DNA from: Perkinsus marinus ATCC 50983
Lineage: Eukaryota > Perkinsozoa > Perkinsida > Perkinsidae
Length of the DNA: 33,303 bases
Reading direction: 5' to 3'
Assembly (NCBI RefSeq): GCF_000006405.1
Contig: NW_003216446.1
Span: 71,209 to 104,511, forward strand
Both the position numbers and the translations under genes were made by a program. Positions 732-33,285 of this stretch are shown piece by piece. The notes under the pieces are model-generated. The model was not told where the DNA came from. It saw only the letters and a list, made by a program, of their open reading frames with translations, and ran no database searches. Numbering within the stretch: position 1 is the first letter of the stretch; each line of letters opens with the position of its first letter.

Positions 732-753
732 GCTATCAGTGATAACTTATCAC
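732..753. repeat. 14-nt inverted self-copy insertion, one mismatch (M6 ttatca)
   Basis: The layout is l-M6-r'-M6'-l'-M6-r with l = g and r = c. The left core reads ctatca instead of ttatca; the inverted core and both flanking bases fit. Probably an old, slightly decayed event. Confidence 0.7.
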
Positions 754-1611
754 GGAATACCCATAATCCAGAACATAGTTGTTGTAACTTTCGAAAAGCC
801 TAGGTGCTATCCTCGTGAATACCTTCTTTTCTACCTAACGAATATCCCCTAAAATAATCGGTGAGATAGACCAATTCCAATTATTCCGCAATTCACTACT
901 CATTGATCACTCATTTTATACGAGAAAATGTTCCATACACAACTTAACTCACGCGTTAGTGCTTCACATATGATTCGGAACTCCCTGAAGAAATCGTATA
1001 ATATCACTTGTACCGAAGCTCGACTGAATCCGATACACGGACTCCCCTAGCTGATGGTCCCGTGAATCACCCGTTGCGGAGCTCCTTCATCCGTTTTCCA
1101 TCGAAGGAGCGCGAGGCATATACAGAGCTGAGCTATCTGTCACGCTGTTGTTCGCTGACTGGGGACTCACGTTTTCTGCACTGTTGTTAACATCTGACCA
1201 ATACACTACAGCAGATCCCAAGTGTCAACTGTCTAACCCACCTCGATTCATAGGACTGGAGGTCGATAGGACAATACTATGACGTTCGTAAAGTGCAGAA
1301 CTCCCCTCGTCAGACTCCTCACTCGCTGAATCTGACATTTGTCCGATTGCTACTAGTCATGGACCGATGATAAGGGTCCGATACGAAACTTTCCCTGACA
1401 ATCCGCGAATTATCTCCAGGCCTGCATGATAGTCACCAGTGTAGGCGAGTACCCGCATTACCATCCTCGGAGTCACCAGATTCTCCGGTGGCGGTGACGC
1501 TCATGGTCTCGGAATCTCCATCTGAGCTACTCTCCGTGAGACTTCTTACTGAGGGAAAAATGATCCGTATGTCGCGCGTAACTCTAGTCATAAGCATGAA
1601 TACCAGATTCG
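754..1611. other. gene-less stretch
   Basis: Small open frames on both strands, such as a 60-codon frame at 1008-1190, have no recognisable domain. Nothing further is supported. Confidence 0.4.
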
Positions 1612-1630
1612 CTGTCTTCGTCGAAGACAG
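1612..1630. repeat. perfect 9-bp palindrome with 1-nt centre
   Basis: Arms 1612-1620 and 1622-1630 are exact reverse complements around a single t. There is no third core copy beside it, so it is not a complete 14-nt insertion structure. Confidence 0.85.
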
Positions 1631-1743
1631 GTCCGCGAGCGTCGCCACTCTCTGAGTCTTCTGAAGGTCGAGAAAGTAATTGCATGAGATGATCATAGCT
1701 AGTGGTCACTACCAGAATCAGCAGCTGTTACTGGCAGTAACTT

Positions 1744-1788
1744 GGAAGATTCTACTCTGCAGTAACTTACTGCAGAGTAGAATCTTCC
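1744..1788. repeat. perfect 22-bp palindrome with 1-nt centre
   Basis: Arms 1744-1765 and 1767-1788 are exact reverse complements around a single c at 1766. The 10-mer gcagtaactt at the centre of the hairpin is also present just upstream, so a copied and inverted neighbour sequence is plausible. The hairpin has no terminator-like T run and no reading frame nearby. Confidence 0.95.
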
Positions 1789-3228
1789 GAGCGTCCCAGC
1801 ACGTCTCTGCGTGGCACGCCCCCTTCTCAACCGTGGTAGCTGTCGGTTTTCCGGGATATACCTGAGGATCACACAGAACACGGTTCGGGCTTCGGAAAAT
1901 TCCGATCCATGTCATCTCCCAATGCTGAGGTTTGCGGTTTCTTTGGAATCATTCCAATAGGATCAACTTACTGTGGCTTAGTTCCCAAGTCAATTTCGAC
2001 TGCGTATGTGTGTGAGCAACAACCCCAGTCGCGGGATTCCTTGCACGTGCAAGTGGCCGTAGTTGTTGGTTGGTTCATTGCATTAGCGCTCTCCTTAGTA
2101 GAGACGAGATAAAAGCAAAAATATCGATCCATCACCTCGTCAAGGGTGAGCTCATCACCTAGCGAGTAACTTCGACTTATTTCGATCATGCAGTCTCGTT
2201 ACCCGCAGGAAAATCTTCAGAGAGGATTCCTTGTAGGAAGACTCGCATCCGACTCTGTAATGCATCTTCGCCCTGATGGGGGGGACATCGGTGATTCTCG
2301 ACCACGAAATACCGAGCGTGCACCCCTTCAATAATTTCGGACACTGTTTCTGATACCTATTGCAAACTTTGATTCGTGTAGATACCATGTACTCGATACC
2401 ATGAGGTATATGCCATACCTCATGAACAAGGCCCCTTTGGTGTATCTTGGTGCCTCGGAGTCGCATCTCGTGTCCATAATCCATAACGTTGATAGGTTCT
2501 GGACGCTTCACAGAATGCTGTTGGCTGGACAGTCTTAGGGCATTAATAACCTACAAACAGCATGTGGTCCATAGTTCATGATGAGTTCGTGGGAAGTGAC
2601 GCAGGCAACATACTCACTCGTTTTATTCTAGTTGCAAATGGAGAAATACCTAAGCGCTTGCTGCCAACGATGCGAGTATGGCTTTTGTGAAAAGACTCGA
2701 CTATATTATTCAATACCTACATTCAATGAGTTCAATCCCAATCAGACAACATGATGTATGACTTACCTGAGCACCTTCTAGTCCTTGGGCTGTGAGCGCG
2801 ATATTTGGGTATCCATATTGCTGTACATCCAAAGTGGTCTGTAGATACTCGGCCCCACGCTGGCAGATACCCCGCACAGTTTTTATCAGGGCAGATGCCA
2901 GGAGATATACAAGGCATCAGTGCATGACGCGTGCAGCCAAGACTTGTGTCTTTTAACCTGTTACATGGATGAGCGTTACGTGTGTACCGTTGGTACCAAG
3001 GTCCTACCACCGGAAAGGCATCGCCGAGCAGCGACTGATTATCTTTCAAGTTTTTTGACAAATGGAAATAGCAACGTCCTAGAAGTTTGATTCCTTAATG
3101 CAGCTGTGCAACTGTGAACTCACCGTTTCGTATACCAGGGAGTCGATCCTCACACGCCCTCAGTGCACCTTGATGAGTATCGTGAACGCACAAGTTCACT
3201 ACATCTATCAAGGTTTTATCCCCACGGC
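1789..3228. other. gene-less stretch
   Basis: Several open frames of 60-118 codons overlap on both strands without recognisable domains. Seen by eye: an even palindrome ttgcacgtgcaa at about 2041 and a 10-bp inverted repeat at about 2399-2423. No gene is supported. Confidence 0.4.
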
Positions 3229-3900
3229 TGATATGAGGTACACTCAAGGTGTACACTGGTATAACAGCAAAAATTCCAATATGAGGTACACTCAAGGTGT
3301 ACACTGGTATAACAGTGAAAATTCTAATATGAGGTACACTCAAAGTGTACACTAATATGACATGGGGAAATTCCAATAGGAGGTACACTCAAGGTGTACA
3401 CTGGTATAACAGTAAAAATTCCAATATGAGGTGCACTCAAGGTGTACACTAGTATGACACGAGAAAATTCCAATATGAGGTACACTTAAGGTGTACACTG
3501 GTATAACAGTAAAAATTCCAATATGAGGTGCACTCAAGGTGTACACTAATATGACACGGGGAAATTTCAATATCAGGTACACTCAAGGTGTACACTAATA
3601 TGACACGGGGAAATTCCAATATGAGGTACATTCAAGGTGTACACTGGTATAACAGTAAAAATTCCAATATGAGGTACACTCAAGGTGTACACTAATATGA
3701 CACGGGGAAATTTCAATATCAGGTCCACTCAAGGTGTACACTAATATGATACGGGGAAATTCCAGTATGAGGTACACTCAAGGTGTACACTGGTATAACA
3801 GTGAAAATTGTAATATGAGGTACACTCAAGGTGTACACTGGTACAACAGTGAAAATTCCAATATGAGGTACACTCAAGGTGTACACTGGTATAACACTCA
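3229..3900. repeat. tandem array, about 14 units of 48 or 49 bp
   Basis: Units start about every 48-49 bp (3235, 3283, 3331, 3380, 3428, 3477, 3525, 3574, 3623, 3671, 3720, 3769, 3817, 3865). Each holds an inverted repeat, gtacac-tcaag-gtgtac. Two unit types are interspersed: a 48-bp type whose spacer reads ggtataacagtraaaatt, and a 49-bp type whose spacer reads aatatgacacggggaaatt. The open frames on both strands here are by-products of the repeat. Confidence 0.95.
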
Positions 3901-4012: not shown

Positions 4013-4034
4013 GTTCCTCGGAGGAACTTCCTCC
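4013..4034. repeat. 14-nt inverted self-copy insertion (M6 ttcctc)
   Basis: Perfect fit. Direct cores 4014-4019 and 4028-4033 flank the inverted core 4021-4026. Left flank g pairs with c at 4027 and right flank c pairs with g at 4020. Confidence 0.93.
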
Positions 4035-4228: not shown

Positions 4229-4250
4229 GTCATGTAACATGACTCATGTT
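4229..4250. repeat. 14-nt inverted self-copy insertion (M6 tcatgt)
   Basis: Perfect fit. Cores lie at 4230-4235 and 4244-4249, with the inverted core acatga at 4237-4242. Flanks are g and t, with matching complements inside. Confidence 0.93.
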
Positions 4251-4735: not shown

Positions 4736-4757
4736 ATTCTGGCCCAGAATTTCTGGG
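4736..4757. repeat. 14-nt inverted self-copy insertion (M6 ttctgg)
   Basis: Perfect fit. Cores lie at 4737-4742 and 4751-4756, with the inverted core ccagaa at 4744-4749. Flanks are a and g. Confidence 0.93.
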
Positions 4758-4838: not shown

Positions 4839-4860
4839 GCATATACTATATGCCATATAG
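4839..4860. repeat. 14-nt inverted self-copy insertion (M6 catata)
   Basis: Perfect fit. Cores lie at 4840-4845 and 4854-4859, with the inverted core tatatg at 4847-4852. Flanks are g and g. Confidence 0.92.
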
Positions 4861-5679
4861 ACACATCTCCCTTCTCAAAGGATACCCCAGTTTACACTTC
4901 CACTAAGCATAAATAGTAGTTCCCTGACAGTCTGGAACCCTCAATGCGATCAGGCTTATCGATCATTCCCCTCTCCTCTATCCCAGATACGTCATGTGGC
5001 CCATATGCGATAGTGATCAGCGCCGAAGCATTGACGGAGCACCCAACAATATTTTTTCTCGCAAGCTCGCTCCGCTCGCTTGCCTTGGAACGCTCACATT
5101 AACAAGCGCCAAAACCTTGCTTGGAATACCTTTCATGCTTCACGCTTGAAATTACATTTGTTGCTTAGGGTAACAATACTCGCTTGGCGTAGTATTGTTA
5201 CGCATACCCAAGCTCGTTTTCTTATCCCAAGCAATCTCCATAATCCAAGCAAATACACTTAATCCAACGTGGATTATCCAAGCTATATGGTGCATGCCAG
5301 AATGTGCTTGGATTAGTGACAAATAAATAAAGGCAAGCGAGCGAAGCGAACTTGGCGAGGAAATCCCAGGCATGATGGCCATGGTCAGACACAACCATTG
5401 TTCTGACAAGACTCAACACGAATGCTCGTCTTGAAAACGACGAAACTTTGTCGTTTCTGAATCATTTGTCATGATGCATACTACACGTAAAGCTTTGTTG
5501 GACAGCTTACCATTAAAACTCATCAAAACTACAATAAAACGACACCCCACCGTCGATGACGGAAAAAAGTGCTATCACCGGCGACCACTGCTGTACTTCT
5601 AGTCGTTAACCCATTTCTCGCTACAGTAGCGGATGACCAGTGGTCAACAGTCTTTACCTTATCATTGCTCTTCTCAGTC

Positions 5680-7210: not shown

Positions 7211-7298
7211 TACACTCTTCGCATAGCCTGGACCATTCTAGCCGATGGACCACTTGGTGTTGCTTCACTCGAACATAGTTGTTCTCGTAGACGAAGTG

Positions 7299-7320
7299 CT
7301 CGCCATTGGCGAGTCGCCAA
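7299..7320. repeat. 14-nt inverted self-copy insertion, copy A only (M6 tcgcca)
   Basis: Perfect fit. Cores lie at 7300-7305 and 7314-7319, inverted core tggcga at 7307-7312, flanks c and a. Copy B keeps the exact empty site at 28916-28923, and copy C is also empty with one base change. Confidence 0.97.
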
Positions 7321-7457: not shown

Positions 7458-7479
7458 TTGCTCTCAGAGCAATGCTCTG
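7458..7479. repeat. 14-nt inverted self-copy insertion, copies A and B (M6 tgctct)
   Basis: Perfect fit. Cores lie at 7459-7464 and 7473-7478, inverted core agagca at 7466-7471, flanks t and g. Copy C has the exact empty site at 21030-21037. Confidence 0.97.
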
Positions 7480-7554: not shown

Positions 7555-7576
7555 ATTCATTTAATGAATTTCATTA
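7555..7576. repeat. 14-nt inverted self-copy insertion, copy A only (M6 ttcatt)
   Basis: Perfect fit. Cores lie at 7556-7561 and 7570-7575, inverted core aatgaa at 7563-7568, flanks a and a. Copy B has the exact empty site at 29158-29165. Confidence 0.97.
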
Positions 7577-7646: not shown

Positions 7647-7668
7647 GACCAAAGTTTGGTCACCAAAC
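7647..7668. repeat. 14-nt inverted self-copy insertion, copy A only (M6 accaaa)
   Basis: Perfect fit. Cores lie at 7648-7653 and 7662-7667, inverted core tttggt at 7655-7660, flanks g and c. Copy C has the exact empty site at 21190-21197, and copy B is empty with one base change. Confidence 0.97.
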
Positions 7669-11140: not shown

Positions 11141-11176
11141 TGACCCCATTATCCTTCCGATGTCATCGGAGGGGCA

Positions 11177-11519: not shown

Positions 11520-11541
11520 CTTTCCATTGGAAAGTTTCCAA
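11520..11541. repeat. 14-nt inverted self-copy insertion (M6 tttcca)
   Basis: Perfect fit. Cores lie at 11521-11526 and 11535-11540, inverted core tggaaa at 11528-11533, flanks c and a. Confidence 0.93.
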
Positions 11542-12522: not shown

Positions 12523-12558
12523 GTCGCAACTTGCGAGTCGCAAGTTGCGACTCGCAAG
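12523..12558. repeat. nested double 14-nt inverted self-copy insertion (M6 tcgcaa)
   Basis: tcgcaa occurs at 12524-12529, 12538-12543 and 12552-12557, alternating with ttgcga at 12531-12536 and 12545-12550. The single-base spacers are c, g, g, c. This is exactly what results when a second event of the same kind hits the inverted core of the first event; other orders give different spacers. Confidence 0.93.
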
Positions 12559-13842: not shown

Positions 13843-13864
13843 GTGAAGCGGCTTCACTGAAGCC
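13843..13864. repeat. 14-nt inverted self-copy insertion (M6 tgaagc)
   Basis: Perfect fit. Cores lie at 13844-13849 and 13858-13863, inverted core gcttca at 13851-13856, flanks g and c. Confidence 0.93.
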
Positions 13865-14050: not shown

Positions 14051-14072
14051 GGGCCAACTTGGCCCGGCCAAG
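14051..14072. repeat. 14-nt inverted self-copy insertion (M6 ggccaa)
   Basis: Perfect fit. Cores lie at 14052-14057 and 14066-14071, inverted core ttggcc at 14059-14064, flanks g and g. Confidence 0.93.
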
Positions 14073-14152: not shown

Positions 14153-14379
14153 ATCTCGAATAACTCTGATTGACCCAGATGCTCCCGTGGATGGTGTCGG
14201 GAACGCTCTTCGTAAGAGCTACGTTCGCAGATAGTTGCAGCGACTTATGATATTTCAGTGATTCGCGTCACCGTTGAGTTCATATGAGTATATTTTCCAC
14301 TTAGCGGACCATTGAGTGACTTATTCTAGGCTAGAATTGCTAGCTAACATTGTAATTTGTGGGGAACCCCTTGCAGCTC

Positions 14380-14401
14380 GTTACCAATGGTAACTTACCA
14401 T
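14380..14401. repeat. 14-nt inverted self-copy insertion (M6 ttacca)
   Basis: Perfect fit. Cores lie at 14381-14386 and 14395-14400, inverted core tggtaa at 14388-14393, flanks g and t. Confidence 0.93.
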
Positions 14402-16044: not shown

Positions 16045-16066
16045 CAGCTCAGTGAGCTGAGCTCAC
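16045..16066. repeat. 14-nt inverted self-copy insertion (M6 agctca)
   Basis: Perfect fit. Cores lie at 16046-16051 and 16060-16065, inverted core tgagct at 16053-16058, flanks c and c. Confidence 0.93.
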
Positions 16067-16097
16067 CTCTTCCCAAGCATACTTCTGAACTTTTCGA

Positions 16098-16240
16098 GTT
16101 TCGAGGCTCGATCTCGAATCGATTCGGTCCCAGAAGTTATATAATCGATTGGCTCAATGTCGATACCGGGAACCGAGAATCGATCTCGAATCGATTCTCT
16201 CGATTCAAGGGCGCCGGTTCGATCCAAGGCACCGGCATTT
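16098..16240. repeat. cluster of tcgaatcgat-type words upstream of the hAT gene
   Basis: gagtttcgaggc and several copies of tcgaatcgatt occur here, and a similar cluster lies at 20286-20410 beyond the 3' end of the transposase gene. Such subterminal repeats are typical of hAT elements and could be transposase binding sites. No terminal inverted repeat pair or 8-bp duplication could be located around them. Confidence 0.4.
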
Positions 16241-16451
16241 TTATGTATTTTCTATTTGAAAAGTTGCGCACAATGAAACCACTGAAACCCAAACCCGTGA
16301 CATACAGCCTATAAGTTTTGAGTTACTGCTACAAATAGTTGAGCCGCTATAGTGTAGCGCTGCTAATTGTTGTTGAAATAGTAGCCAAGCTGCATGGCCG
16401 GCGGCCGTTAGCCGCCGTGTCACGGCGCATTTCGCGCCGTTCATCGTTAAA

Positions 16452-16473
16452 CGAAGCACTGCTTCGGAAGCAC
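16452..16473. repeat. 14-nt inverted self-copy insertion, flank mismatch (M6 gaagca)
   Basis: Cores lie at 16453-16458 and 16467-16472, inverted core tgcttc at 16460-16465. The left flank fits; the right flank is c where g is expected. It lies about 75 bp before the hAT start codon. Confidence 0.75.
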
Positions 16474-16545
16474 ATAGCCTAGAAGTTTTCCTGCGTATAC
16501 CATCTGATTTCGTTTGTCGTAGCACAACGTACCATTCGCTTTCTC

Positions 16546-19500
16546 ATGCCTACATCGAATGCAGCAACGCCGCGAGGTCAGGGTTCCGGATTCTTTCCAC
16601 CCGGTATTGGAGGTGGCTTCTCTGGTGGCAGAAAGCGTCGCAGGATTGAAACTGGGATAGCACCCATTATGGATCTGTCTTCTGAGCACAGCTCTCCTGA
16701 AGCGCACTCTTGCTCTCGTGGTGTTCTTCGACGCTCTTTTGGTGCTCCTTCTCGCTCCTCTGGTGCTCCTCCTCGCTTCTCTGGTACTCCTTCTCGCCCC
16801 TCTGGTGCTCCTCCTCGCTTCTCTGCTACTCCTTCTCGCCCCTCTGGTGCTCCTCTTCGCTTCTCTGGTACTCCTTCTCGCCCCTCTGGTGCTCCTCCTC
16901 GCTTCTCTGCTACTCCTTCTCGCCCCTCTGGTGCTCCTCCTGGCTCCTCTAGTGCTCCTTCTCGCCCCTCTGGTGCTCCTCTTCGCTTCTCTGGTACTCC
17001 TTCTCGCCCCTCTGGTGCTCCTCCTCGCTTCTCTGCTACTCCTTCTCGCCCCTCTGGTGCTCCTCCTGGCTCCTCTGGTGCTCCTTCTCGCCCCTCTGGT
17101 GCTCGTTGTCGCTCTTCTGGTACTCCCTCTCGCTCCGGTGATTCTCCTCCTCGCTCCTCTGGTACTCTCTCCCGCCCCTCTCAGATCTCAGCAAGAACTG
17201 TTGAGGCTCCACCTGATGCCTACGCTGAACCGCCGTGCAAGTCTAAGCTAGATTACGAGAAATACGACACTTGCCCCAAAGAAAATCGCCGCTCAAAGCC
17301 AAGCAGGGTGTGGGAGCAGTTTCATGTCATTCGGTGCAAGCGAACTGGGTTTGTCTACCCAGAGCGCGCGGTCTGCAAGAAATGTGGACAGGTTTACTCT
17401 ATGAGGAAGCAAAATACTTCGGCGCTTCTATGCCATATCGACAACGGATGCGACGAACAAAGGGATCAGCCACCAATAGCATCGTACTTTTACCAGAAAC
17501 GGAAGGTCAATTCCAATCAGAAATCTGCTGTGAATGCGGCGTTGGTTGATCTGCTGGCATGCGTGCCTGGTATAAGCTTCAACGGAACCCAGATAGCAGC
17601 ATTCAAGAAATTCGTTGAGGTCGCGGCTCAGTGGGGGCAGAAAATAGGTCGGGCTTCGATGCATCGCAAGTCTTATTTTGCCCCAAGACTCTTACTGACG
17701 ACATGTTGAAGAAAGGGGCGGACGCCACAGAGAAGATTAAGAACCACCTAGCTCAGCAGCCAAAGCCAATAATGGTAGTACGGGAAAAGGTCAGCACGGG
17801 ATCGGTATTGGGAAGGCGGACTAACGGAGGTATCTGTCAGCCTTGCAATCTGCGAGTTTGTAGATACTTTTCGACGGCTGGACCAGCCACCATAAGCACG
17901 AGAATGTGCTTGGAGTCACCACACTTTTGAATGTTAACGACGTGCAGCGGAGCGTTCTTCTGGCACTGGAGACACCAGAGACCATGACCGCTGATGACAT
18001 TCAGGAAAGCTTGGAACGGGTAATCTCAACGTTAGCGACTAATGGTTAGTCCATAAATATCGACTCTATATTTTTGGACTAACCGCCAGTTAGTCCATTC
18101 ATCGACTCGATAATATCGAGGAGCAATGGATCACTGAAGCTCAGTGAACAGTATTAATGTTTTCAGGTATGTTCTAGATATCAAATCCCGATAGAAAAGG
18201 TGCTATTTGCCAGTGATAGCTGTTCGGCGAATACGGCGGCTCTCGGGCAAGGCAATATGGCCTCCGTGTGCTGTTTTGCACATATGGTGCAAAACGCCCT
18301 GAAGGCCGGGATGACACACCCTGTGGACAATGCGATAGACAACTGCGAGGATGCGCTACGCAGCATGAACACTGGAGAGACTCTTGAAGCTTTTCTCGAG
18401 GAGCAGGCAACGGCTCCGGTCGAGTCGGTTCTTCTGACAAGCTCGCGCCTCGTTGCGTACTTCAAGAGGTCGAAGCTGAATGGCAAGCTAGCACGTCTTG
18501 GATACAACAAGTAATAGAGTCGCTGTGTATGTTTCAACGGTCAGATCAGGCTAAAGCGAAGGAGCACAGTTCGCTGGGACTCTGTTTATGAGATGATCGA
18601 TAAGATAATTAAGAGCTGGTCGGGTATTGAAGAACTTCTCAGAGAAAAGAATAAAACGAGGTGATACCTTAAGTCAGCTTAGTAAGATCCAAGCTTAGAA
18701 AGCGTCCAGCTGTTCTAGGCCAAAACTAACCAGTAGTGTTAACTTTATTGCGCTCAGGAACTTCCAGAACTTGCTTTCGAACAAAGAGCTATTGATTCAA
18801 ATTCGTAGCTTCTTAATCCCTTTTCGCATAGCGACCAAAGTTATGCAAGGGAGGAAGCCGGGAACGGCAGTAAAATCCATTGTGTGAGTCAAACGGAGTG
18901 GTTCATTTTCTTCGCCTTGAAGTAGTCTGTGAATCCTCAGGAAGCTTGAGCGGTGCTGGATATTCCTTCAAACTTCTCCTCCTGGAGAATTTGAGGATTT
19001 GCAAATGGTACGCAGTAACGTCAAAGAGCAGTTCTTCCTGAAGGTACCTCGGAATGGACACGTAGTTTCCGATTGGATCTCTCGATTGCAGGTCATATGT
19101 AACCTTACCCCAGACGCTTTGCTCCCTGCAATGTTGCACCCTGCAACGAAGGTCAGAGGTGTAGAGAAGCTAAAAATGGTTACTGAGTATAGAAGACGTA
19201 TCAAGGGTGAAGAGTCTATTCTCCGCCGTGAGGACTTAATCGAAGCGCTAAAAGGATGGTCGCTCATCACCGAGAACAGCAACGAAAACAATATACACAC
19301 TAATCATAGTACTAGCGAGAATGATGCTGCTGAAGCTAATATGCTAGAACAAGTGGTCGAAATTGCTGACGACAGCCTCCTGCAAGGATTGATTGACGTG
19401 AAAGACTTGCCTAGGTGGAGTGAGAGGGGTAGGGACAGAACAGCTGATGAAAAAGCCCTGCTGATCGATAAAGAAGTTAAGCAATGGGCTAAATTGGGTG

Positions 19501-19733
19501 GGCATTGTGAAGACTATGAGACCTTTTGGAATACTGCTAAGCTGGATTATCCCTATCTTGCTCGCACGGCAACGGTGGCACGCGGGGTGGTTATATCAAC
19601 GGCATGTGTGGAGAGTCTGTTCTCCGAGATCCGGGATATCATAGGTGATAAGCGCACCAGAATGAGAATGGAGGTTGTTGAAGCACTTCTCAAAACTCGT
19701 CACACATACAGATTGTGGGACAATGACAAGTAG
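16546..19733 (+). CDS. hAT-superfamily transposase with BED zinc finger, multi-exon
   Basis: A cut-and-paste DNA transposase. Proposed exons: 16546-17619, 17688-17774, 17830-17859, 17897-18019, 18167-18510, 18550-18660, 18758-18883 and 18941-19733, about 895 aa. Introns of 37-147 nt were placed where GT-AG sites keep the family alignment and phase; the first (17620-17687) is the least certain. Order: a Ser/Pro/Arg repeat tail (about residues 60-210), a BED finger (VW..F, CKKC at about 276, HIDNGC) and the hAT core. The core includes NVLGVTTLL, ASDSCSANTAAL, CCFAHMVQNAL and TVRWDSVYEMI. The C-terminal dimerisation domain reads YPYLARTATVARGVVISTAC then VESLFSEIRDIIGDKRTRM. In this spliced frame the first catalytic Asp position reads SLAICEF, so it may be Ala. 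No stop interrupts the assembled frame, so it could be intact. Confidence 0.82.
16720..17175 (+). repeat. coding minisatellite, 42-bp units
   Basis: About ten units of 14 codons encode variations on PSRPSGAPPRFSGT. The sequence is open in all three plus frames, giving Leu-rich and Cys/Ser-rich alternatives that are shadows. It encodes the low-complexity linker between the transposase N terminus and its BED finger. Confidence 0.9.
18099..18120. repeat. 14-nt inverted self-copy in a transposase intron, one mismatch (M6 tatcga)
   Basis: Left core 18100-18105 catcga, right core 18114-18119 tatcga, inverted core tcgata at 18107-18112; flanks t and g fit. It lies inside the proposed intron 18020-18166. 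The same intron holds gttagtcc at 18045-18052 with its inverted copy at 18076-18083. Confidence 0.72.
18511..18549 (+). other. 39-nt spliceosomal intron in the hAT gene
   Basis: gtaata to gatcag in phase 2. Removal joins LGYNK to LKRRSTVRWDSVYEM, where RWDSVYEM corresponds to the conserved TRWNS block of hAT transposases. The intron carries two stop codons in the reading frame. Confidence 0.8.
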
Positions 19734-19742
19734 ATGTGAGAA

Positions 19743-19764
19743 ACTCACAATGTGAGTCTCACAT
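19743..19764. repeat. 14-nt inverted self-copy insertion (M6 ctcaca)
   Basis: Perfect fit, 10 bp after the transposase stop codon. Cores lie at 19744-19749 and 19758-19763, inverted core tgtgag at 19751-19756, flanks a and t. Confidence 0.93.
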
Positions 19765-20121
19765 GCTTCGGTGATAATTATTATGCAATTCTGAGGCTGA
19801 TTCCACAACTACAAGCTTTCAGTGTTTGATTTCGCTGTCGAGGTGCATCAGGCGACCCTACTTCTAGCCTTACTTGAAACCTAATGTCTATGGGGTTGAT
19901 GAACATAAATGTCGAATATGAGTTGATTAAATCGATGGTATGTAAATCATACTAAGCGGTGTCATCAAATGTCATACTCTTCTATTTGATAGAATCTATT
20001 GTGTCTTTGACCTTTCGATTAAATCATTCATTTTGCATATGCAATTAACTCATCGACTACATGCTATCTACACTCTTTATAGGGCGCTGAGTTCAAGAGT
20101 GGCAAGACAGTAAGGGTACCA

Positions 20122-20143
20122 GTGCATGACAGGCACTGCCTGT
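20122..20143. repeat. 14-nt inverted self-copy insertion, one mismatch (M6 tgcctg)
   Basis: Left core 20123-20128 tgcatg, right core 20137-20142 tgcctg, inverted core caggca at 20130-20135; flanks g and t fit. Confidence 0.72.
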
Positions 20144-20449
20144 GGCTATCAACTGAGCGGTCTAGCCTCGACCCTTATTTTTTTTTCGCGCGCTACGCGC
20201 GCGTGGATGTGCTCTGCGGCAGCCGTCCTAAATTGTTGTCGAACTAAGCCTCAATGCCGACGTAAAAGAACATTTCAATGGATTTTGAGTTTCGAGGCGG
20301 ATCGATTTCTCGAATCGAATCGATTCGTGCGCCCGCCGTAGCATCCTCGATTGATTAGCACCGAACAATCGATCGATTTTCGATATCTCGATCCAATCGA
20401 GCCTCGGTCCGATGTATGTTCCCAAGCCTTGCTGAAGATGGGTGCAGAA

Positions 20450-21601: not shown

Positions 21602-21623
21602 TATGTTGCCAACATAATGTTGG
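21602..21623. repeat. 14-nt inverted self-copy insertion, copy C only (M6 atgttg)
   Basis: Perfect fit. Cores lie at 21603-21608 and 21617-21622, inverted core caacat at 21610-21615, flanks t and g. Copies A (8068-8075) and B (about 30372-30379) are empty, with atgtcg as the core. Confidence 0.96.
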
Positions 21624-22379: not shown

Positions 22380-22401
22380 GTAAGCATTGCTTACTAAGCA
22401 A
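22380..22401. repeat. 14-nt inverted self-copy insertion (M6 taagca)
   Basis: Perfect fit. Cores lie at 22381-22386 and 22395-22400, inverted core tgctta at 22388-22393, flanks g and a. The bases just before also pair with it, so the predicted empty site was itself a short palindrome. Confidence 0.92.
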
Positions 22402-26423: not shown

Positions 26424-26445
26424 GCTCTGAATCAGAGCCTCTGAT
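26424..26445. repeat. 14-nt inverted self-copy insertion (M6 ctctga)
   Basis: Perfect fit. Cores lie at 26425-26430 and 26439-26444, inverted core tcagag at 26432-26437, flanks g and t. Confidence 0.93.
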
Positions 26446-27229
26446 CCCCGTGATCGTCCCGGTTCGGATTTCACTGTCGATGATCAACCCCCATTATGAT
26501 TGACAACACTGCGAGTTTGATATTTTCGATTCTTACATATTGCGAAGAAACATACACATTATCACTGATGTACCTTATTCTTCCTCCGACTCTGAGTCGC
26601 TCTCTTCAAAGAGGGACATGGACTTAGTCGAAGCCAGCTTCCGTATCTCGGTCAAATCAATGTAGATGCTGAATGGGAGTCTGCTCCTTCGAGACTACAG
26701 AGGGCGTAACCGTTGAAGCGATTAACCATTCTTAGCCACATCTGGGAGGATTACCTATACCCAAGCTCGTTTCCTTATCCCGAGCGATCTCCATAATCCA
26801 ATCAAATACACTTAATCAAACGTGGATTATCCAAGCTATATGGTGCATGCCAGAATATGCTTGGATTAGCGGCCAATAAATAAAGGCAAGCGAGCGAAGC
26901 GAGCTTGGCGTGAAGATCCCAGGCATGATGGCCATCGTCAGACACAACCATTGTTCTGACAAGACTCAACACGAATGCTCGTCTTGAAAACGACGAAACT
27001 TTCCGTGTAGATGCATCATTTGCCATGATGCATACTACACGTAAAGCTTTGTTGGACAGCTTACTATTAAAACTCATCAAAAATACAATAAAACGACACC
27101 CCAGCGTCGATGACGGAAAAAAAGTACTATCACCGGCGACCACCGCTGTGCTTCTAGTCGTTAACCCATTTCTCGCTACAGTAGCGGATGACCAGTGGTC
27201 AACAGTCTTTACCTCATCATCGCTCTTCA

Positions 27230-27278
27230 GAATACGTATGAATCAGACTGAGAATCTCAGTCTGATCCATACGTATTC
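27230..27278. repeat. 24-bp palindrome with 1-nt centre, specific to copy B
   Basis: Arms 27230-27253 and 27255-27278 pair with one mismatch around a at 27254. Copy A has only the right arm (about 5673-5696), so the left arm plus about three bases is an insertion of about 27 nt, an inverted copy of its neighbour. Confidence 0.88.
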
Positions 27279-28175
27279 CATAATTACGATCCTCCCAAAA
27301 ACTTAAATCTTTCGCAAGGATCTCTAGAGAGCGATAATGAGCACGAGTTTGATCTACCACCTTCTTGTAGTCAGCTCTCAGGCCTTCAATAGAACGTTTT
27401 AGGAGTTCTGAGATTAAAAAGATTAACGTTGATACATCTACCAGCACTAACAATCTTCTTCACACGCTTATAATAAGTGACAACTCTCTCACTAGGACCC
27501 TGCTTAACTCAATCAAAACTTTCTCTCCAACGAAGTGGATCATCAGTAATATGTTACTTATCACCCAAAAATCTCTCCGTCATAGATAATATAGTAATAG
27601 TACCAAGGCCCAAAGCCGACGATTCCTCCAGAAAATCGAAGATATCGGATAAGACATTAGCATCAACAGCACGGATAAGGAAAGACCAGCAGGTATCAGC
27701 ATCCAAACGATAGATGCGTACTACTTGTGAAAACGATCTCACCCAAGCCGAGACAGCCTGTCTCAGACAGGTCTAATATCATCTTCACAAGCATATTTTA
27801 TGCTATCCGAACTAGGCAACTGAGCAATAGCCGATACTGGTATCAGTTCCACTCCTATCAGTGACAATAACGTCACGCAGGTAGTCAGATATATAAGGTC
27901 GTCCATCTGAATGAACTTCTGAAATAGCATGAGTAACGGGCACGGGATTTGCACCTGGCAGGAGCAGGCAGGCCTGCTTAACCAGCTGACAAAGCAATAA
28001 CGTGTCCGCTAAACTCGTAGAATTCTCAGCTTCCTCAAAGCCAACAGGCCTTAGAAACCGGACACTATCCTCGGGAGCACCGAGGAGCACCGCAATTCGA
28101 TGTAAAGCATCACTCGCAACATCACGAGGATTTGGAAGACCAGCGTAAAGGAGTTGTCGGAACCGGGGTATTCAC
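27255..28175 (-). pseudogene. degenerate gag-like protein relic (copy B)
   Basis: Minus-strand homologue of the relic at 5680-6595. It retains LGAPEDSVRFLRPVGFEEAE, YISDYLRDVIVTDRSG, MRSFSQVVRIYRLDADTCW and RADYKKVVDQTRAHYRSLEI, and reads AKDLSFWEDRN where copy A has a stop. It shares with A the TAA after FLGDK and the TGA before VKQG. The 14-nt insertion at 27750-27771 separates DDIRPV from SAWVRSF, and its removal joins them in one frame. Copy B has lost several codons near 27410-27425. The family call is as uncertain as for copy A. Confidence 0.6.
27750..27771. repeat. 14-nt inverted self-copy insertion in the gag relic, copy B (M6 agacag)
   Basis: Perfect fit. Cores lie at 27751-27756 and 27765-27770, inverted core ctgtct at 27758-27763, flanks g and g. 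Taking out 14 nt restores the minus-strand reading frame, which shows directly that this is an insertion into formerly coding sequence. Confidence 0.97.
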
Positions 28176-28596
28176 TGCATCGGGTACCATTGTAGTGAGT
28201 TAAGCCGAACCCAAGTATACTTGTAATGGATAGAACTAGTAGGTTTATGAATACAACCAACATAGCAAAACTTTATATGTAAGTGATCTTAGCGTCACGT
28301 TAAAATGACACAGCTAACACAAAATTCAAAGACAGATAATTGTAAAGCAGGGGTAATCTCTAATACTGTAGCATAGGCAAAATACCTCCGAGGGCTTGCT
28401 GCTAAGTGAAATCACCATCATCCGGTCGTATTAGTCGGCAAGTTCATTTCTACTGTCGTTCGCGAACATAGATGCATCGCCCTTATAGCGGATTCGCTGC
28501 CGCCTATGCCATACTGTCCTCTCCAGATCCAGACCGGTCAGGCTGACTCTCGGCAACTCGCTCACCTTGTTGGAAAGGCTGGATGACAGTTGTGTA

Positions 28597-28618
28597 GGCA
28601 GCATTGCTGCCGCAGCAA
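28597..28618. repeat. 14-nt inverted self-copy insertion, copy B only (M6 gcagca)
   Basis: Perfect fit. Cores lie at 28598-28603 and 28612-28617, inverted core tgctgc at 28605-28610, flanks g and a. Copy A has the exact empty site at 7008-7015. Confidence 0.97.
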
Positions 28619-28791
28619 CACCGTCTCTCGCGTGTCGGCCATCGAGGTTGCGGCCTTACTTACCCAGCCATCGTTGCTTCCTCACCTGTGAGGGCATGAT
28701 GTGATACTTTGAATGTGCACCTAGATCAATCTTCAACGTGGAATGGTTGCTGCGAGAGTGTTGGATGATGCGAGCTCCGTATGTCCAACGC

Positions 28792-28813
28792 CTCCATCGG
28801 GTGGAGTCCACCC
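28792..28813. repeat. 14-nt inverted self-copy insertion, one mismatch, copy B (M6 tccacc)
   Basis: Counterpart of 7189-7210, with the same single mismatch in the left core (tccatc). Confidence 0.75.
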
Positions 28814-28870
28814 TTCACTCTTCGCATAGCCTGGACCATTCTAGCCGATGGACCACGTGGTGCTGTTTCA

Positions 28871-28892
28871 CTCGAACTCTTCGAATCGAACA
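28871..28892. repeat. 14-nt inverted self-copy insertion, two mismatches, copy B only (M6 tcgaac)
   Basis: Direct cores lie at 28872-28877 and 28886-28891. The inverted 8-mer at 28878-28885 differs at two positions from the expected copy. Copy A has the exact empty site at 7268-7275, so a 14-nt insertion is certain. Confidence 0.88.
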
Positions 28893-29060
28893 TAGTTGTC
28901 CTCGTAGACGAAGTGCTCGCCAACCCTATTGGAAGTTGCCTCGTGCGCATTCTGCAGCGTATGATAATCATACTAAGGTACCTGACTACGATATCATTCG
29001 CCGAGAGCGACATATGTCTCTCGTTGCCGAGTACGGCGCTGCTCTATTGTCGAGGAGAGG

Positions 29061-29082
29061 TTGCTCTCAGAGCAATGCTCTG
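29061..29082. repeat. 14-nt inverted self-copy insertion, copies A and B (M6 tgctct)
   Basis: Perfect counterpart of 7458-7479. Copy C has the empty site at 21030-21037. Confidence 0.97.
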
Positions 29083-29614
29083 CTTTAGTACTTTCATACG
29101 CTCCTCACATTAGCAGAATCCACTGATGGAACCCTAATGGTATTGGTTACATCTTCGATTCATTATGAAGTACACATAAGCTAGCGGTAACCTCGAAAAC
29201 CCCTCCTATTCGATTACACGACAGGGCCGAGGACTGAACAAACTCGCAAGCGTGCAAAGCAGATGCTATACAGTATACCTAGTATAGCTTATACTCCGAG
29301 TGAGCCTCAAGTTTCGCGGGAGGCAGTAGGTCAAATGAGTATGCACATCATTCTAAATATAATACACTGAGCCATATTCTCCTGAGCCGAAAAATACGGC
29401 GAGAGCGGTGGAAACAACATCAAGACTGAACCACGACTATCGATCCCCAACATCATAAACCACAGGGAACACTCCGAGTATTTGTGATCGCCCTAAATTG
29501 GGGCCGTAGTTGCTACTGCCTAATGTGATATCAGCAAAAAAAAGCACCAGCATCCGGACTATATCGTATCAAACGGATTCCTCCGTCAAAAATACTCTCC
29601 CAAGACTGTATCTA

Positions 29615-30339
29615 TACCTTTCAGAAATCTTTTTGGCGGATTAGGCTATCAATTCAGCTGATAAGGAAGTCACCTTCGCGAACAGGGACATCAATTTAGC
29701 GATGAAGGTTGAATAGGGAAATCAATTTCGCGAATAAAGACATCAATTTCATGATTAAGGAATGCAACTTCACGAGCAAGGACATCAATTTAGGGTAGGA
29801 GCTCTGATGATGACGATTTACGATGTGCAGCTCTATAAGCCATTCCTGGATGATAGCGCAACCCCACACGATGCTCAGAAACCATATTAATAGTTAATTG
29901 CAACTATTCGGCATGCCATGACTGACATAGAAATATATAAAAAATCTCAACGTCAGAACTGAATCGCCCGAAATAAGCACGACACGGCACGCAGTGTTTC
30001 TCTCTCGGAGAGAGAAACACTACAGATGACAAGCTGGGCAACATCTTTCCAGAAGTATCTTCGGGAAAGATGCTTCTGCGCAGCGTAAAGGATTCGTTTA
30101 CACATTATCTGTCAATTCTAGCAGCACGAAGATTCTTCTGTGTTCATCAGAGCTCTAACCCGAAATTGGTGTCCTTGCTTGTGAAGTTGCATTCCTTAAT
30201 CATGAAATTGATGTCTTTATTCGCGAAATTGATTTCCCTATTCAACCTTCATCGCTAAATTGATGTCCCTGTCCGCGAAGGTGACTTCCTCATCAGCTGA
30301 ATTGATAGCCTAATCCGCCAAAAAGATTTCTGAAAGGTA
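29615..30339. mobile_element. fold-back element with 196-bp inverted ends and TA target duplication
   Basis: Inverted ends 29615-29810 and 30144-30339 match closely and start tacctttcag. They are flanked by TA at 29613-29614 and 30340-30341. Copy A shows the empty site gtatc-ta-gttcgg at 8031-8043, with a single TA. Each end is largely built from 21-bp tandem units of the type gacatcaatttcrcgaataag, with one 10-bp partial unit. The 333-bp centre holds no gene; the 62-codon frame at 30070-30258 is repeat-derived. A TA duplication suggests mobilisation by a Tc1/mariner-like transposase, although other TA-targeting families are possible. Confidence 0.93.
29993..30021. repeat. perfect 14-bp palindrome with 1-nt centre
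   Basis: Arms 29993-30006 and 30008-30021 around g at 30007, inside the centre of the fold-back element. A second pair, catctttcc and ggaaagatg, lies at about 30042-30072. Confidence 0.93.
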
Positions 30340-30524
30340 TAGTTCGGAAAGGTCTAAACGTTTATCACCAATATGTCGGGCAGATCGCCAGCGAGATGTG
30401 GTAGAGGGATGTGACTCTTTCATGTATGCATCTTGGGACGTATTGATATCGCGGCCAAGGCTGGCGGCGTGGAATGAAGAATGATGATAAGCAAACGATC
30501 GCAACGTTGACGTAAACGAGAAAA

Positions 30525-30546
30525 GTGTGTGTGTGTGTGTGTGTGT
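30525..30546. repeat. GT dinucleotide microsatellite
   Basis: Copy B counterpart of the run at 8211-8230. Confidence 0.95.
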
Positions 30547-30603
30547 AAACTTGGGGTAACCCGTGACGCTTCAGTGCGTATTACGGGAGGTGTGTGTCGT
30601 GGT

Positions 30604-30625
30604 AGACTAAATTAGTCTGACTAAT
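30604..30625. repeat. 14-nt inverted self-copy insertion, copy B only (M6 gactaa)
   Basis: Perfect fit. Cores lie at 30605-30610 and 30619-30624, inverted core ttagtc at 30612-30617, flanks a and t. Copy A has the exact empty site at 8288-8295. Confidence 0.97.
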
Positions 30626-30673
30626 GGTATCTCAGAGACCTGAATCGGGTCTCGTACTATCAGTGATAGTCGG

Positions 30674-30714
30674 GCTTCGTTGCGTAGTGATAGCATATCA
30701 CTACGCAATGAAGC
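30674..30714. repeat. 19-bp inverted repeat with 3-nt loop
   Basis: Arms 30674-30692 and 30696-30714 pair with one mismatch. Copy A has a more diverged form at about 8343-8380. Copy C has only the right-hand sequence, so the left arm arose by inverted copying after C split off. Confidence 0.82.
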
Positions 30715-31025
30715 TAAGCTGGGGATAAAAAGTTTCCGTAGCTGCTCCGCAACGGAACTGGTCGTTCTTCTGTAGAACATCTACATATCGAAGCGCGACG
30801 AATTAGTGACGCAGTTCAACTTGAGAGGCAAACACCTATTTTGTAGAGGAAATAGTACTACAGGGATGCCGTGTCGCTGTAGCAGTTCGTCGCCGACGTA
30901 AATATGAAGTTGAGACCTGAAGTTGAGAAACATGCATCCACCCCACGAGACCAATCGACACCCCCAATCGCAGTAGATAAGGTTGACGAGCAAGATTACC
31001 GTGTAGTCGATGAGATTATGCTCCT

Positions 31026-31847
31026 GTCAATTCCTCCCGATTGTCACTCCTAGATCCAAGAGACAGTAAATAGCATCTTGTTGAGTCATCACGACAATGC
31101 TATCAGTTGTATGTCTTTACTTTTCCACCAAACTTGCTATCGGTGCCTCCACGCGACGCCATGCGTGCTGTCCCCAAGCAGAAGGGCGTCACGCCATTGA
31201 TCATGGCATCTTTTTCCCATTATGTCTCTACTACTCTGCCTGTTGATTATGGCATCTATTAACGGTAATGACTTGAGTACTGAAGTAGTTGGGGATGATC
31301 TATTACGTACCTCTGCTGGAATAAGAAGTTCCGGAGTTACACCGATACCCCATTGTGTAGCGATATAGTGGTTTGGGTGGTTGCCACGGGGAAAACCATG
31401 ATCCGCACTATTTGCGGCGACTAAACACACCTGAGAGTTGACACTCTGGTGCTGTTGGTTTTCTCGATGGCGCCTTTCACATCATCGTCGCATATGTAAG
31501 TCATAGTTCGAGCTCTGGTCTAAACCAAATACATTATGACAGAACTGACGATGCAATAACGGCCCTTATACCTCTAGAGGGTGCAGGTGGCCGGGAGAAG
31601 CCTCGTACGTATCCCATCAGATGCTGAGTTCCAGCAACTGGGCCTCTCCGAGTGAGAAGTTTTAGCGTCCCGGCGAGCGCTCGACTAATCTAGCGCTCTT
31701 TGTGTATTGTGATATATTCATATCTCGCTCATCTTGTGATTCATATTTTATTGTGATTCATATTTCGCTTTTATGCAAATTGCATAAATCGTGCATGTCC
31801 ATGGAAGTTAATTACGTTGTAACACTCATCACTCACATCTCTTTGTG
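31026..31847. other. gene-less stretch
   Basis: No gene recognised. tgattatggcatct-like words are repeated at about 31200 and 31244, and ttgtgattcatatt is repeated at 31734-31768. A 9-1-9 palindrome lies at about 31772-31790. Confidence 0.4.
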
Positions 31848-32996
31848 TTAACCGTCTACATGGGAGATGCTCAAACCCATATAGTCATTATGTCTGATGA
31901 CCTCAGAAAATGCATTCACCATAGCAGCACGGTCGTCGACTTGATCAGGAATACAACGAACCAACGCGCTCGAAGAATATTCGCCAAACCTTAACTGCAT
32001 AGCACCCATACTAGAACATAACATCAAACCAGGCAGGATAACGCCACCCATAATCAACCTTAGCAGCGACACATTGTCCTCAACACTAATAGTATCCATA
32101 CGCATTGAGGTCAAAGCAGAAGCTGCAGCCACGATTGCCGATTCAACTGGAGACGTGCTAGGCAACACGCTATAGGAGACATTGAGGCGGGGGAAGTCGT
32201 AAGTGGTTCTTGGACCAAGCGTACCCAACAAGGGGTGCGCTGGGTCAGGAGCCCAATTCGCGCCGGCGTCATAGTAGTCAAACCCGCACAAAAAGCTGAG
32301 AGCGAAGCTATAGCCAGCATCAATCGCGTCAACGTCCGGCAAGACACGAGCAGGCACGTCAACACACTTTCTGATCCCCGCCCACAAAGCATCATTTGTT
32401 ATTTCGTCGCCGGCAGGTGCAATAATATCGCCACCCTGTCCCTCGGCCCAGCCGCGGCCCAATCCGCCGGCTGCCAAAGCCTCAGCACCCACAATTGTCC
32501 ATGGTGTGCCACCCCAGCGAGGACTAGTTATCAAAAACTTACCTATAGCCACCGCCTCGGGCCCTAATAACACATTCATAATAGCCAACTCACTCGTCGA
32601 CAAATTATGCTCCATAGCATCGATCATCAAGCGTTCACCCGAACGAAACTAATTGATATTGGTCTCTAGATAACTCAAATACTCATTGCGAGGTACACCG
32701 TTGACATTTGGCAGCGCACCAGGCAGCCTGGTTGGCATAAAGGTTGTGCTATTTTTCCATCCGGAAATTTCCGGAAGGAAATTTGCAAGAAAAATAAATG
32801 ATGGAAAAATAGGGAAAAATAACACCATCTCTCGCCTTTTCTTTCCGCTGGAATCCATCAACTCTCGAGCGATGTATGCCCGGGCAAAGCGAGTAAATCT
32901 CCGACTATTATGCAGAGTACATCTAAGATGTAACATCTTCGGGAACACCTCTTGACAAAAGGCTTCTGTGCATATGCCCGACAAATCTTGATCCAC
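31848..32996 (-). pseudogene. unrecognised long open frame interrupted by one TAG
   Basis: The minus-strand frame runs from 32996 to a stop at 31848-31850, broken only by TAG at 32649-32651. The part after the stop is 260 codons, Ala/Gly-rich, with segments LMIDAMEHNLSTSELAIMNV, LGPEAVAIGKFLITSPRWGG, YDFPRLNVSYSVLPS and RLIMGGVILPGLMLCSSMGA. The part before it, from about MPTRLPGALPNVNGVPRNEY, reads in the same frame. Its far upstream end overlaps ggaaggaaat-type repeat sequence and a 14-nt insertion, so the true start is probably the Met of MPTRLPG at about 32737. No domain is recognised. A structural or capsid-like protein of a retroelement or an endogenised virus is a guess from composition alone; a host gene with TAG mutated or read through is equally open. 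Confidence 0.5.
32918..32939. repeat. 14-nt inverted self-copy insertion (M6 acatct)
   Basis: Perfect fit. Cores lie at 32919-32924 and 32933-32938, inverted core agatgt at 32926-32931, flanks t and t. It lies upstream of the minus-strand frame at 31848-32740. Confidence 0.93.
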
Positions 32997-33035
32997 GAGC
33001 CACTCGTGGCAAGGGTATGAGAATCACATTGTATA

Positions 33036-33068
33036 CCACATTTTCTCTCATAATGAGAGAAAATGTGG
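33036..33068. repeat. perfect 16-bp palindrome with 1-nt centre
   Basis: Arms 33036-33051 and 33053-33068 around a at 33052. No third copy of the arm is present. Confidence 0.95.
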
Positions 33069-33263
33069 CTCACAATGTTCTCGACTTTGACTCATGACAT
33101 AAATGCCATGATTTAATGGGTTGCGTTTAGTGAATCGTAATCGATTTTGTCTCGAAGAATACATAGAGCCTAGTACTTCATGAAGTCTCAACGATTTCGT
33201 CGCGGCAAACGACACTTTGAAGACACGGAGGAATGCTCCAGGGTAGAAGAGTACCACAGGCGG

Positions 33264-33285
33264 ACAGTGAATCACTGTCAGTGAT
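33264..33285. repeat. 14-nt inverted self-copy insertion (M6 cagtga)
   Basis: Perfect fit. Cores lie at 33265-33270 and 33279-33284, inverted core tcactg at 33272-33277, flanks a and t. Confidence 0.93.

What the first reader, a model, noticed from the sequence alone, without database searches (positions are those of the whole stretch)
732..33285. A recurrent 14-nt insertion that is an inverted copy of its own target (8-bp inverted copy, 6-bp core duplicated)
Seen directly: 24 loci fit l-M6-r'-M6'-l'-M6-r without a mismatch. They start at 4013, 4229, 4736, 4839, 7299, 7458, 7555, 7647, 11520, 12523, 13843, 14051, 14380, 16045, 19743, 21602, 22380, 26424, 27750, 28597, 29061, 30604, 32918 and 33264; 7458 and 29061 are one event in two paralogues. 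About a dozen more have one mismatch (for example 732, 6166, 7189, 8847, 11177, 11801, 12007, 16452, 18099, 20122, 20450, 22514). A perfect fit imposes 14 base constraints, so about 0.0001 are expected in this window under equal base use. The cores share no consensus and the insert has no constant bases, so it is not a classical transposon. The size is nearly constant (6-bp core, single-base spacers). Double template switching during replication is known to make inverted copies, but of variable length. Fixed geometry suggests a defined intermediate, such as a staggered break of set length repaired by copying from the opposite strand. I know of no described system with this signature.
Basis: partly seen in the sequence, partly recalled or inferred. 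Interest (0 to 1): 0.96.

Follow-up and report, generated by a model that had tools for sequence, protein, structure and literature searches.

The report
Jumping-gene exit scars, 22 bases long
The repeated 14-base insertions look like scars left when "hAT" jumping genes cut themselves out of the DNA of a marine single-celled parasite, with many of the scars healed in one and the same way so that past jumps stay readable in the sequence.

Summary
In detail: 24 perfect 22-mers l-M6-r'-M6'-l'-M6-r, 0 in 200 Markov copies, 0 in 50 kb of E. coli, none at cores 7-20. Nine perfect sites have an unfilled copy shorter by 14 nt; at eight it holds exactly the 8-bp target lMr, at one with a base change. 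Outgroups show gain at four.

My explanation: excision footprints of hAT transposons. An 8-bp target duplication plus hAT chemistry (flank cut 1 nt outside the element, ends sealed as hairpins) gives ends lM-r'-M'l' and r'M'-l'-Mr. Opened and annealed over their shared 8 nt, they give exactly lM r'M'l' Mr. Support: targets carry the hAT preference nTnnnnAn (36 of 70, 27% expected, p=1e-5); one-base-centred palindromes are by far the most enriched; the window holds a hAT element with an 8-bp duplication and 99.9% identical copies, one of them absent from a near-identical contig. Host: Perkinsus marinus, from one identical protein.

The kind is known; the uniform product and density are unusual. 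Not shown: one site occupied in one copy and footprinted in another. Annealing is inferred.

The parts
4013..4034 (.). 22-nt footprint, target GTTCCTCC
   Evidence: perfect fit
4229..4250 (.). 22-nt footprint, target GTCATGTT
   Evidence: perfect fit
4736..4757 (.). 22-nt footprint, target ATTCTGGG
   Evidence: perfect fit
4839..4860 (.). 22-nt footprint, target GCATATAG
   Evidence: perfect fit
7299..7320 (.). 22-nt footprint, target CTCGCCAA; copies c2 and c3 unfilled
7458..7479 (.). 22-nt footprint, target TTGCTCTG; shared with c3 (29061), c2 unfilled
7555..7576 (.). 22-nt footprint, target ATTCATTA; c2 and c3 unfilled
7647..7668 (.). 22-nt footprint, target GACCAAAC; c2 and c3 unfilled (c3 with a base change)
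11520..11541 (.). 22-nt footprint, target CTTTCCAA
   Evidence: perfect fit
12523..12558 (.). cluster of overlapping footprints with period 14; perfect frame at 12530
13843..13864 (.). 22-nt footprint, target GTGAAGCC; unfilled in the C132 copy
14051..14072 (.). 22-nt footprint, target GGGCCAAG; unfilled in the C132 copy
14323..14344 (.). 22-nt footprint with one mismatch, target ATTCTAGC; unfilled in C40, C285 and C15 copies
   Evidence: in the pairwise alignment the C285 copy shows a net 7 because it has 7 extra bases next to the site
14380..14401 (.). 22-nt footprint, target GTTACCAT; shared with C40, C285, and C15 (one mismatch)
16045..16066 (.). 22-nt footprint, target CAGCTCAC; shared with the copy at C333:67 kb
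16070..16077 (.). left 8-bp target duplication TTCCCAAG of the resident hAT element
   Evidence: single copy at the unoccupied paralogue
16078..20418 (+). resident hAT transposon, 4341 bp, CATAC...GTATG ends; near-identical copies in C79 and C157
18158..18511 (+). open piece of the hAT transposase gene with a CxxH motif (VCCFAHMVQNAL)
   Evidence: role of the motif from the Kat1/Hermes passages
18999..19733 (+). open piece of the hAT transposase gene, PF05699 dimerisation domain E=8.6e-7
19743..19764 (.). 22-nt footprint inside the hAT element, also in the C79 and C157 copies
20419..20426 (.). right 8-bp target duplication TTCCCAAG
21602..21623 (.). 22-nt footprint, target TATGTTGG; c1 and c3 unfilled, both with one base change
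22380..22401 (.). 22-nt footprint, target GTAAGCAA, in a period-14 cluster 22373-22405
26424..26445 (.). 22-nt footprint, target GCTCTGAT
   Evidence: perfect fit
27227..27278 (.). 28-nt insertion (27227-27254) forming a palindrome with one-base centre and arms of 24, absent from c1; second footprint class
27750..27771 (.). 22-nt footprint, target GAGACAGG; shared with 6166 (one mismatch)
28597..28618 (.). 22-nt footprint, target GGCAGCAA; c1 unfilled
28871..28892 (.). 14-nt insertion with two mismatches to the model, absent from c1 and c2
29061..29082 (.). 22-nt footprint, same event as 7458
30604..30625 (.). 22-nt footprint, target AGACTAAT; c1 and c2 unfilled
32918..32939 (.). 22-nt footprint, target TACATCTT
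   Evidence: perfect fit
33264..33285 (.). 22-nt footprint, target ACAGTGAT
   Evidence: perfect fit

Best explanation
Each 22-mer is the excision footprint of a hAT DNA transposon. Step 1: an element inserts and duplicates its 8-bp target lMr. Step 2: the transposase cuts it out; on each side the flank is cut 1 nt outside the element and sealed as a hairpin, whose tip is the complement of the base next to the element (left end reads lM-r'-M'l', right end r'M'-l'-Mr). Step 3: the hairpins are opened at some distance from the tip, exposing single strands that share the 8 nt r'M'l'. These anneal, and gaps are filled and ligated, giving lM r'M'l' Mr, a net gain of 14 nt. Shown here: the geometry, 8-bp unfilled alleles, gain polarity at four perfect sites, the nTnnnnAn target bias, resident and recently moving hAT elements with 8-bp duplications, and the one-base palindrome centre. 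Inferred: that an element once sat at each footprint, the hairpin step in this organism, and annealing over 8 nt as the reason for the uniform product.
For: Geometry: core 6 with spacers 1 and 1, i.e. an 8-bp target with 1-nt offsets. Nine perfect sites have an unfilled copy that is shorter by 14 nt; at eight of them an unfilled copy holds exactly lMr, and at the ninth (21602) both unfilled copies differ by one base. Target bias T2/A7 is 36 of 70 in 35 distinct perfect events (p=1.0e-5) and 68 of 142 in 71 events with one mismatch allowed (p=6e-8); nTnnnnAn is the Hermes preference (PMC10368747 passage). One-base-centred palindromes: arm exactly 7, 113 against 3 in the control; arm 13 or more, 19 against 0 in the control and 0 for centre length 0. 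[quoted passage not shown] Kat1 forms its hairpin mostly 1 nt from the end (PMC4763223 passages). Resident hAT: window 16078-20418, copies in C79 and C157 about 99.9% identical, each with its own 8-bp duplication; 11 of 15 copies examined at both ends have clean 8-bp duplications, A7 in 10 of 11 and T2 in 5 of 11; C79 carries the element and the 99.7-99.8% identical stretch of C202 does not.
Against: No site was found that is occupied by an element in one copy and footprinted in another. Of 10 resident insertions searched, 7 had an empty copy elsewhere, none with 14 extra bases by match length (40 of 75 candidates scored); the window's own insertion also has a plain 8-bp empty copy. Short footprints that keep both cores and both complemented bases are not clearly in excess: 0 against 1.0 expected for the classical form, at most 6 against 2.3, whereas published hAT footprints are diverse. 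Direct repeats in general exceed the Markov control there because of tandem repeats, so that test is blunt. Other loop lengths also show a mild palindrome excess. Only one hAT family's duplications were checked, and it need not be the family that made the footprints. Footprints are many relative to the hAT transposase matches found (14, a lower bound).
Confidence: 0.83

Rival explanations
1. Ordinary template switching or snap-back synthesis during replication or repair makes inverted copies of neighbouring DNA, with no transposon involved.
For: It makes inverted copies in principle; longer single palindromes and a few non-14 inverted insertions exist.
Against: Lengths would vary, but 33 hits sit at one geometry and none at cores 7-20; the one-base centre and the T2/A7 bias are unexplained.
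Confidence: 0.03
2. Another transposon superfamily with 8-bp duplications (Merlin, P, KDZ or similar) makes the footprints by a similar hairpin route.
For: Two preserved Merlin-related open frames and several remnants are reported in P. marinus, and Merlin duplications are 8-9 bp (PMC8101967 passages). No element was caught at a footprint site.
Against: The P. [quoted passage not shown] Merlin was not searched in this genome. Flank hairpins with a 1-nt offset are documented for hAT; the target bias is the hAT one; recently mobile hAT copies are present.
Confidence: 0.08
3. A hAT-derived or host hairpin-forming nuclease acts on 8-bp target sites directly, or in an integrate-and-leave-at-once reaction, so that no stable insertion precedes the 14-nt gain.
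For: No occupied allele was seen at any footprint compared; events are dense (six 14-nt differences between two copies about 95% identical over 3,357 aligned bases); the target bias fits integration preference.
Against: The product needs two direct copies of the core, which a real insertion supplies; conventional elements with stable insertions exist.
Confidence: 0.05

Closest known systems
Excision footprints of hAT transposons (Ac/Ds, Tam3, Hermes, TcBuster)
   Same: Palindromic insertions centred on the complement of the base next to the element; target duplications (8 bp for hAT); microhomology-assisted joining of opened hairpins (passages of PMC5873905, PMC1978519, PMC3499496). One product can prevail at one site: 11 of 17 Ds excisions in Arabidopsis gave the same footprint.
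   Different: Published sets are otherwise diverse (28 different footprints among 128 revertants in Candida, two of them predominant); here one 22-nt form, holding the whole 8-bp duplication as an inverted copy, recurs at many unrelated targets.
Kat1, a domesticated hAT transposase of Kluyveromyces lactis
   Same: Flank hairpins formed mostly 1 nt from the terminal repeat; CxxH motif needed for hairpins (PMC4763223 passages).
   Different: Acts at the mating-type locus; here footprints lie at many sites without a shared sequence beyond nTnnnnAn.
V(D)J recombination P-nucleotides
   Same: Hairpin opening away from the tip leaves palindromic additions (comparison made in PMC1978519 passages).
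   Different: RAG hairpins have no 8-bp duplication and no 1-nt offset centre (recalled).
Template-switch mutations
   Same: Inverted copies of local sequence (recalled).
   Different: Variable length and no target consensus (recalled).

Membership tests
hAT excision footprint | target of 8 bp | tested here: met
   9 of 9 perfect sites with an unfilled copy are shorter there by 14 nt; at 8 of 9 an unfilled copy holds exactly lMr, at 21602 with one base change; geometry grid
[quoted passage not shown]
   r' and l' centres by definition of the scan; one-base centres the most enriched of loop lengths 0-7
hAT excision footprint | target preference nTnnnnAn | tested here: met
   36 of 70 against 27% expected; three events with two-letter cores left out
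hAT excision footprint | hAT elements with transposase and 8-bp duplications in the same genome, recently mobile | tested here: met
hAT excision footprint | same site seen occupied by an element and, in another copy, with the footprint | tested here: inconclusive
   10 resident sites searched; 7 had empty copies, none with a footprint by length (40 of 75 candidates scored). The c1 family was found only in its three window copies, none with an element at a footprint target
hAT excision footprint | diverse footprints (usual, not defining) | tested here: inconclusive
   short classes not clearly in excess, but long one-centre palindromes form a second class; deletions and precise repair are invisible to these scans
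hAT excision footprint | hairpin intermediates in vivo | not testable with these tools
   needs biochemistry
Template-switch mutation | broad length distribution (recalled) | tested here: not met
Merlin excision footprint | 8-9 bp duplications and GG ends at resident copies | not tested
   features from PMC8101967 passages; Merlin was not searched in this genome

The most novel reading that the evidence does not exclude
A hairpin-forming, hAT-derived enzyme in Perkinsus acts on 8-bp sites genome-wide without a stable transposon insertion, so the 14-nt gains are a one-step mutational process that keeps writing inverted copies into the genome.
Probability: 0.06. Interest if true: 0.88.

Novelty: new variant of a known kind. 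Interest (0 to 1): 0.56.

Why it matters
A uniform footprint that can be recognised with almost no chance background lets past transposon excisions be counted from sequence alone, which is hard when footprints are ragged. It would give an excision record for an alveolate parasite, and it points to a repair route that joins hairpin-capped ends through the target duplication itself. That makes a concrete question testable: how far from the tip hairpins are opened, and when microhomology of the full duplication wins. It also warns that a sharp inverted-copy signature need not mean a new mutational system.

Tried and rejected
Template switching: rejected on fixed geometry. A 6-bp-duplication transposon reading (the core alone as duplication): less good, because the complemented bases on both sides and the T2/A7 bias define an 8-bp target. 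The window's inverted repeat at 29612-30342 as the agent: rejected; it is a 0.7-kb element with a TA duplication (mariner-like by eye). Classical short hAT footprints as a parallel class: no clear excess. Copies of the c1 family elsewhere, to catch an element at a footprint site: the search found only the three in this window. Host by 18S rRNA: not answered; an actin locus was translated in one frame and judged by eye without result; the host comes from transposase identity. Transposase against solved structures by sequence: 0 matches. No Rfam family and no tRNA in the window.

Rows dropped: the target-bias count left out 3 perfect events whose core has only two letters (4013, 7647 and one in L011). 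The footprint-class scan left out such cores too and the last 60 bases of each source, so it counts 29 where one search counts 33. The indel census has 38 rows that are not independent: one event appears in several pairwise alignments, one 14-nt event aligned as 15, and one as 7. Indels under 4 nt, alignment ends and the 0.7-kb insertion were left out. My note says 37 rows; the recount is 38. One search scored 40 of 66 candidates, one search scored 40 of 75.

Papers: passages only were seen of PMC5873905, PMC3499496, PMC4763223, PMC1978519, PMC8101967 and PMC10368747; all others as search listings. I found no description of this 22-nt product in the listings of searches (an open-licence library) nor of footprints in Perkinsus in 49, 59 and 73. 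Yu 2004 is not held; Colot 1998 and Lazarow 2012 were not looked up. It may well be in print.
Full report
What was checked. The 24 perfect 22-mers of the form l-M6-r'-M6'-l'-M6-r are in the window; one start is 12530 rather than 12523, and 7458/29061 are one event in two paralogues. In 200 order-3 Markov copies of the window there were 0 hits against 24, and 50 kb of E. coli had none with up to two mismatches. Across 19 sources (5 of them wholly N) with 141,991 non-N bases, 33 hits fall at core 6 with spacers 1 and 1, one at core 6 with spacers 1 and 0, and none at cores 7-20 with spacers 0-4. At core 5, 14 hits have spacers 1 and 3 in either order and the same 14-nt period; about that many (33/4 for each order) are expected as chance extensions, and 5 further hits have other spacers. 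Outside the window there were 9 hits in 108,688 bases. This sample is not random, so a genome-wide figure of a few thousand perfect events is only a rough extrapolation.

Filled and unfilled copies. The window holds three paralogous stretches: c1 about 5200-8600, c2 about 20560-22080, c3 about 26750-30950. c1 and c3 are about 95% identical, and c2 is the outgroup (83-88%). The 22-mers at 7299, 7555 and 7647 are in c1 only, with c2 and c3 unfilled; 30604 is in c3 only, with c1 and c2 unfilled. These four sites show gain. 7458/29061 is in c1 and c3 with c2 unfilled; 21602 is in c2 with c1 and c3 unfilled; 28597 is in c3 with c1 unfilled and c2 not comparable. Against a copy on contig C132, 13843 and 14051 are unfilled there; polarity at these last five is open. 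At all nine sites the unfilled copy is shorter by 14 nt. At eight an unfilled copy has exactly the 8-bp lMr; at 21602 both unfilled copies have one base change, and single unfilled copies at other sites (for example c3 at 7647, c2 at 7555 and 30604) also carry changes. The event at 14323 (one mismatch) is unfilled in three copies, and 28871 (two mismatches) is unfilled in c1 and c2. Among 38 indel rows of 4 nt or more in ten pairwise alignments, 17 are exactly 14 nt, from 11 different sites (rows are not independent). Other events with a comparison copy were filled in every copy seen: 27750/6166, 14380, 16045 and 19743.

What makes them. The window contains an open piece of a hAT transposase gene with PF05699 and another with a CxxH motif. 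These belong to a 4341-bp element at 16078-20418 with copies about 99.9% identical on C79 and C157; each copy is flanked by its own 8-bp duplication. Searches with the two ends found 18 and 17 places, many of them, by their coordinates, shorter copies of about 1.43-1.6 kb. Of 15 copies examined at both ends, 11 have clean 8-bp duplications, 2 have flanks that do not match, 1 has diverged ends, and 1 has Ns on one side; three more were seen at one end only. C79 has the element and C202, 99.7-99.8% identical over the 5.6 kb compared, does not, so the family moved recently. A 529-aa hAT reading frame from contig C25 is 100% identical to a Perkinsus marinus ATCC 50983 protein, with the next hit, from P. 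olseni, at 79%; this one protein identifies the host.

Mechanism. hAT enzymes cut the flank 1 nt outside the element and close it as a hairpin (Kat1: hairpin mostly 1 nt from the repeat). [quoted passage not shown] Apply this to a target lMr duplicated on both sides. The left hairpin strand reads lM-r'-M'l' and the right one, in the same orientation, r'M'-l'-Mr. Both contain r'M'l'. If the hairpins are opened beyond that stretch and the strands anneal over these 8 nt, the product is lM r'M'l' Mr, the observed 22-mer with no free parameter: 8 is the duplication, 6 is 8 minus two offsets, 14 is 8 plus 6. This derivation is mine; the published passages give the parts, not this product.

Independent tests. 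First, the 35 distinct perfect targets (three with two-letter cores left out) have T at position 2 or A at position 7 in 36 of 70 cases against 27% background (p=1.0e-5); with one mismatch allowed, 68 of 142 (p=6e-8). That is nTnnnnAn, the preference given for Hermes. The resident duplications show A7 in 10 of 11 and T2 in 5 of 11. Second, palindromes with a one-base centre stand out: arm exactly 7 in 113 cases against 3 in a Markov control (the 22-mers themselves give many of these), and arm 13 or more in 19 cases against 0 in the control and 0 for centre length 0. Other loop lengths show a milder excess (for example 12-15 at arm 7 for loops 3, 4, 5 and 7 when the inner pair is not complementary). 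The long ones (31 rows, some of them copies of one another or part of the period-14 clusters) include a 28-nt insertion in c3 that is absent from c1, centred on one base with arms of 24. A single hairpin opened far from its tip would explain this second class.

Results against. I did not catch one site occupied by an element in one copy and carrying a footprint in another. Ten resident insertions were searched with joined flanks; seven had an empty copy elsewhere, all of plain length without 14 extra bases (judged by match length, 40 of 75 candidates scored). The family of the window's c1 copy was found only in its three copies here, so it could not serve either. Short footprint classes that keep both cores and both complemented bases are not clearly in excess (0 against 1.0 for the classical form, at most 6 against 2.3), unlike published hAT sets, so the near-uniform outcome needs an explanation. 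I infer annealing over the full duplication, but did not test it. Precise repair and footprints with deletions would be invisible to my scans, so the prominence of the 22-mer is among recognisable products only.

Verdict. It is best filed as hAT excision footprints, a known kind, in an unusually uniform and dense form. Confidence in hAT excision is 0.83. Confidence that annealing over the duplication is the repair step is lower, about 0.65.

Noticed in passing
window 12517-12557 and 22373-22405: Period-14 clusters in which footprints overlap (2.9 and 2.4 copies); perhaps two rounds at one site or repeated annealing during repair. Unexplained.
   Followed up: partly
window 11866-11954: Palindrome with 44-nt arms (91% complementary) and a one-base centre, the longest of the second class.
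   Followed up: partly
window 29615-30339: 0.7-kb element with inverted ends of about 199 nt inserted in c3 with a TA duplication; mariner-like non-autonomous element by eye.
   Followed up: partly
G000:C282, around 1006-2667 and array to 15721: A hAT copy sits inside what looks by eye like a tRNA-Cys gene, in a tandem array with a unit of about 373 bp (spacing).
   Followed up: no
window 16607-17265, 9059-11235, 3231-3897: Minisatellites of 21/42, 123 and 48 bp; the first lies in a long open frame within the hAT element.
   Followed up: no
window 24054-24422: Fragment of a papain-family peptidase (PF00112, E=2.7e-8).
   Followed up: no
L023 (C200:1-10000), 211-3309: Six one-mismatch 22-mers and no perfect one in 10 kb; in three of them both direct copies of the core agree and the inverted copy differs. 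Possibly older events.
   Followed up: no
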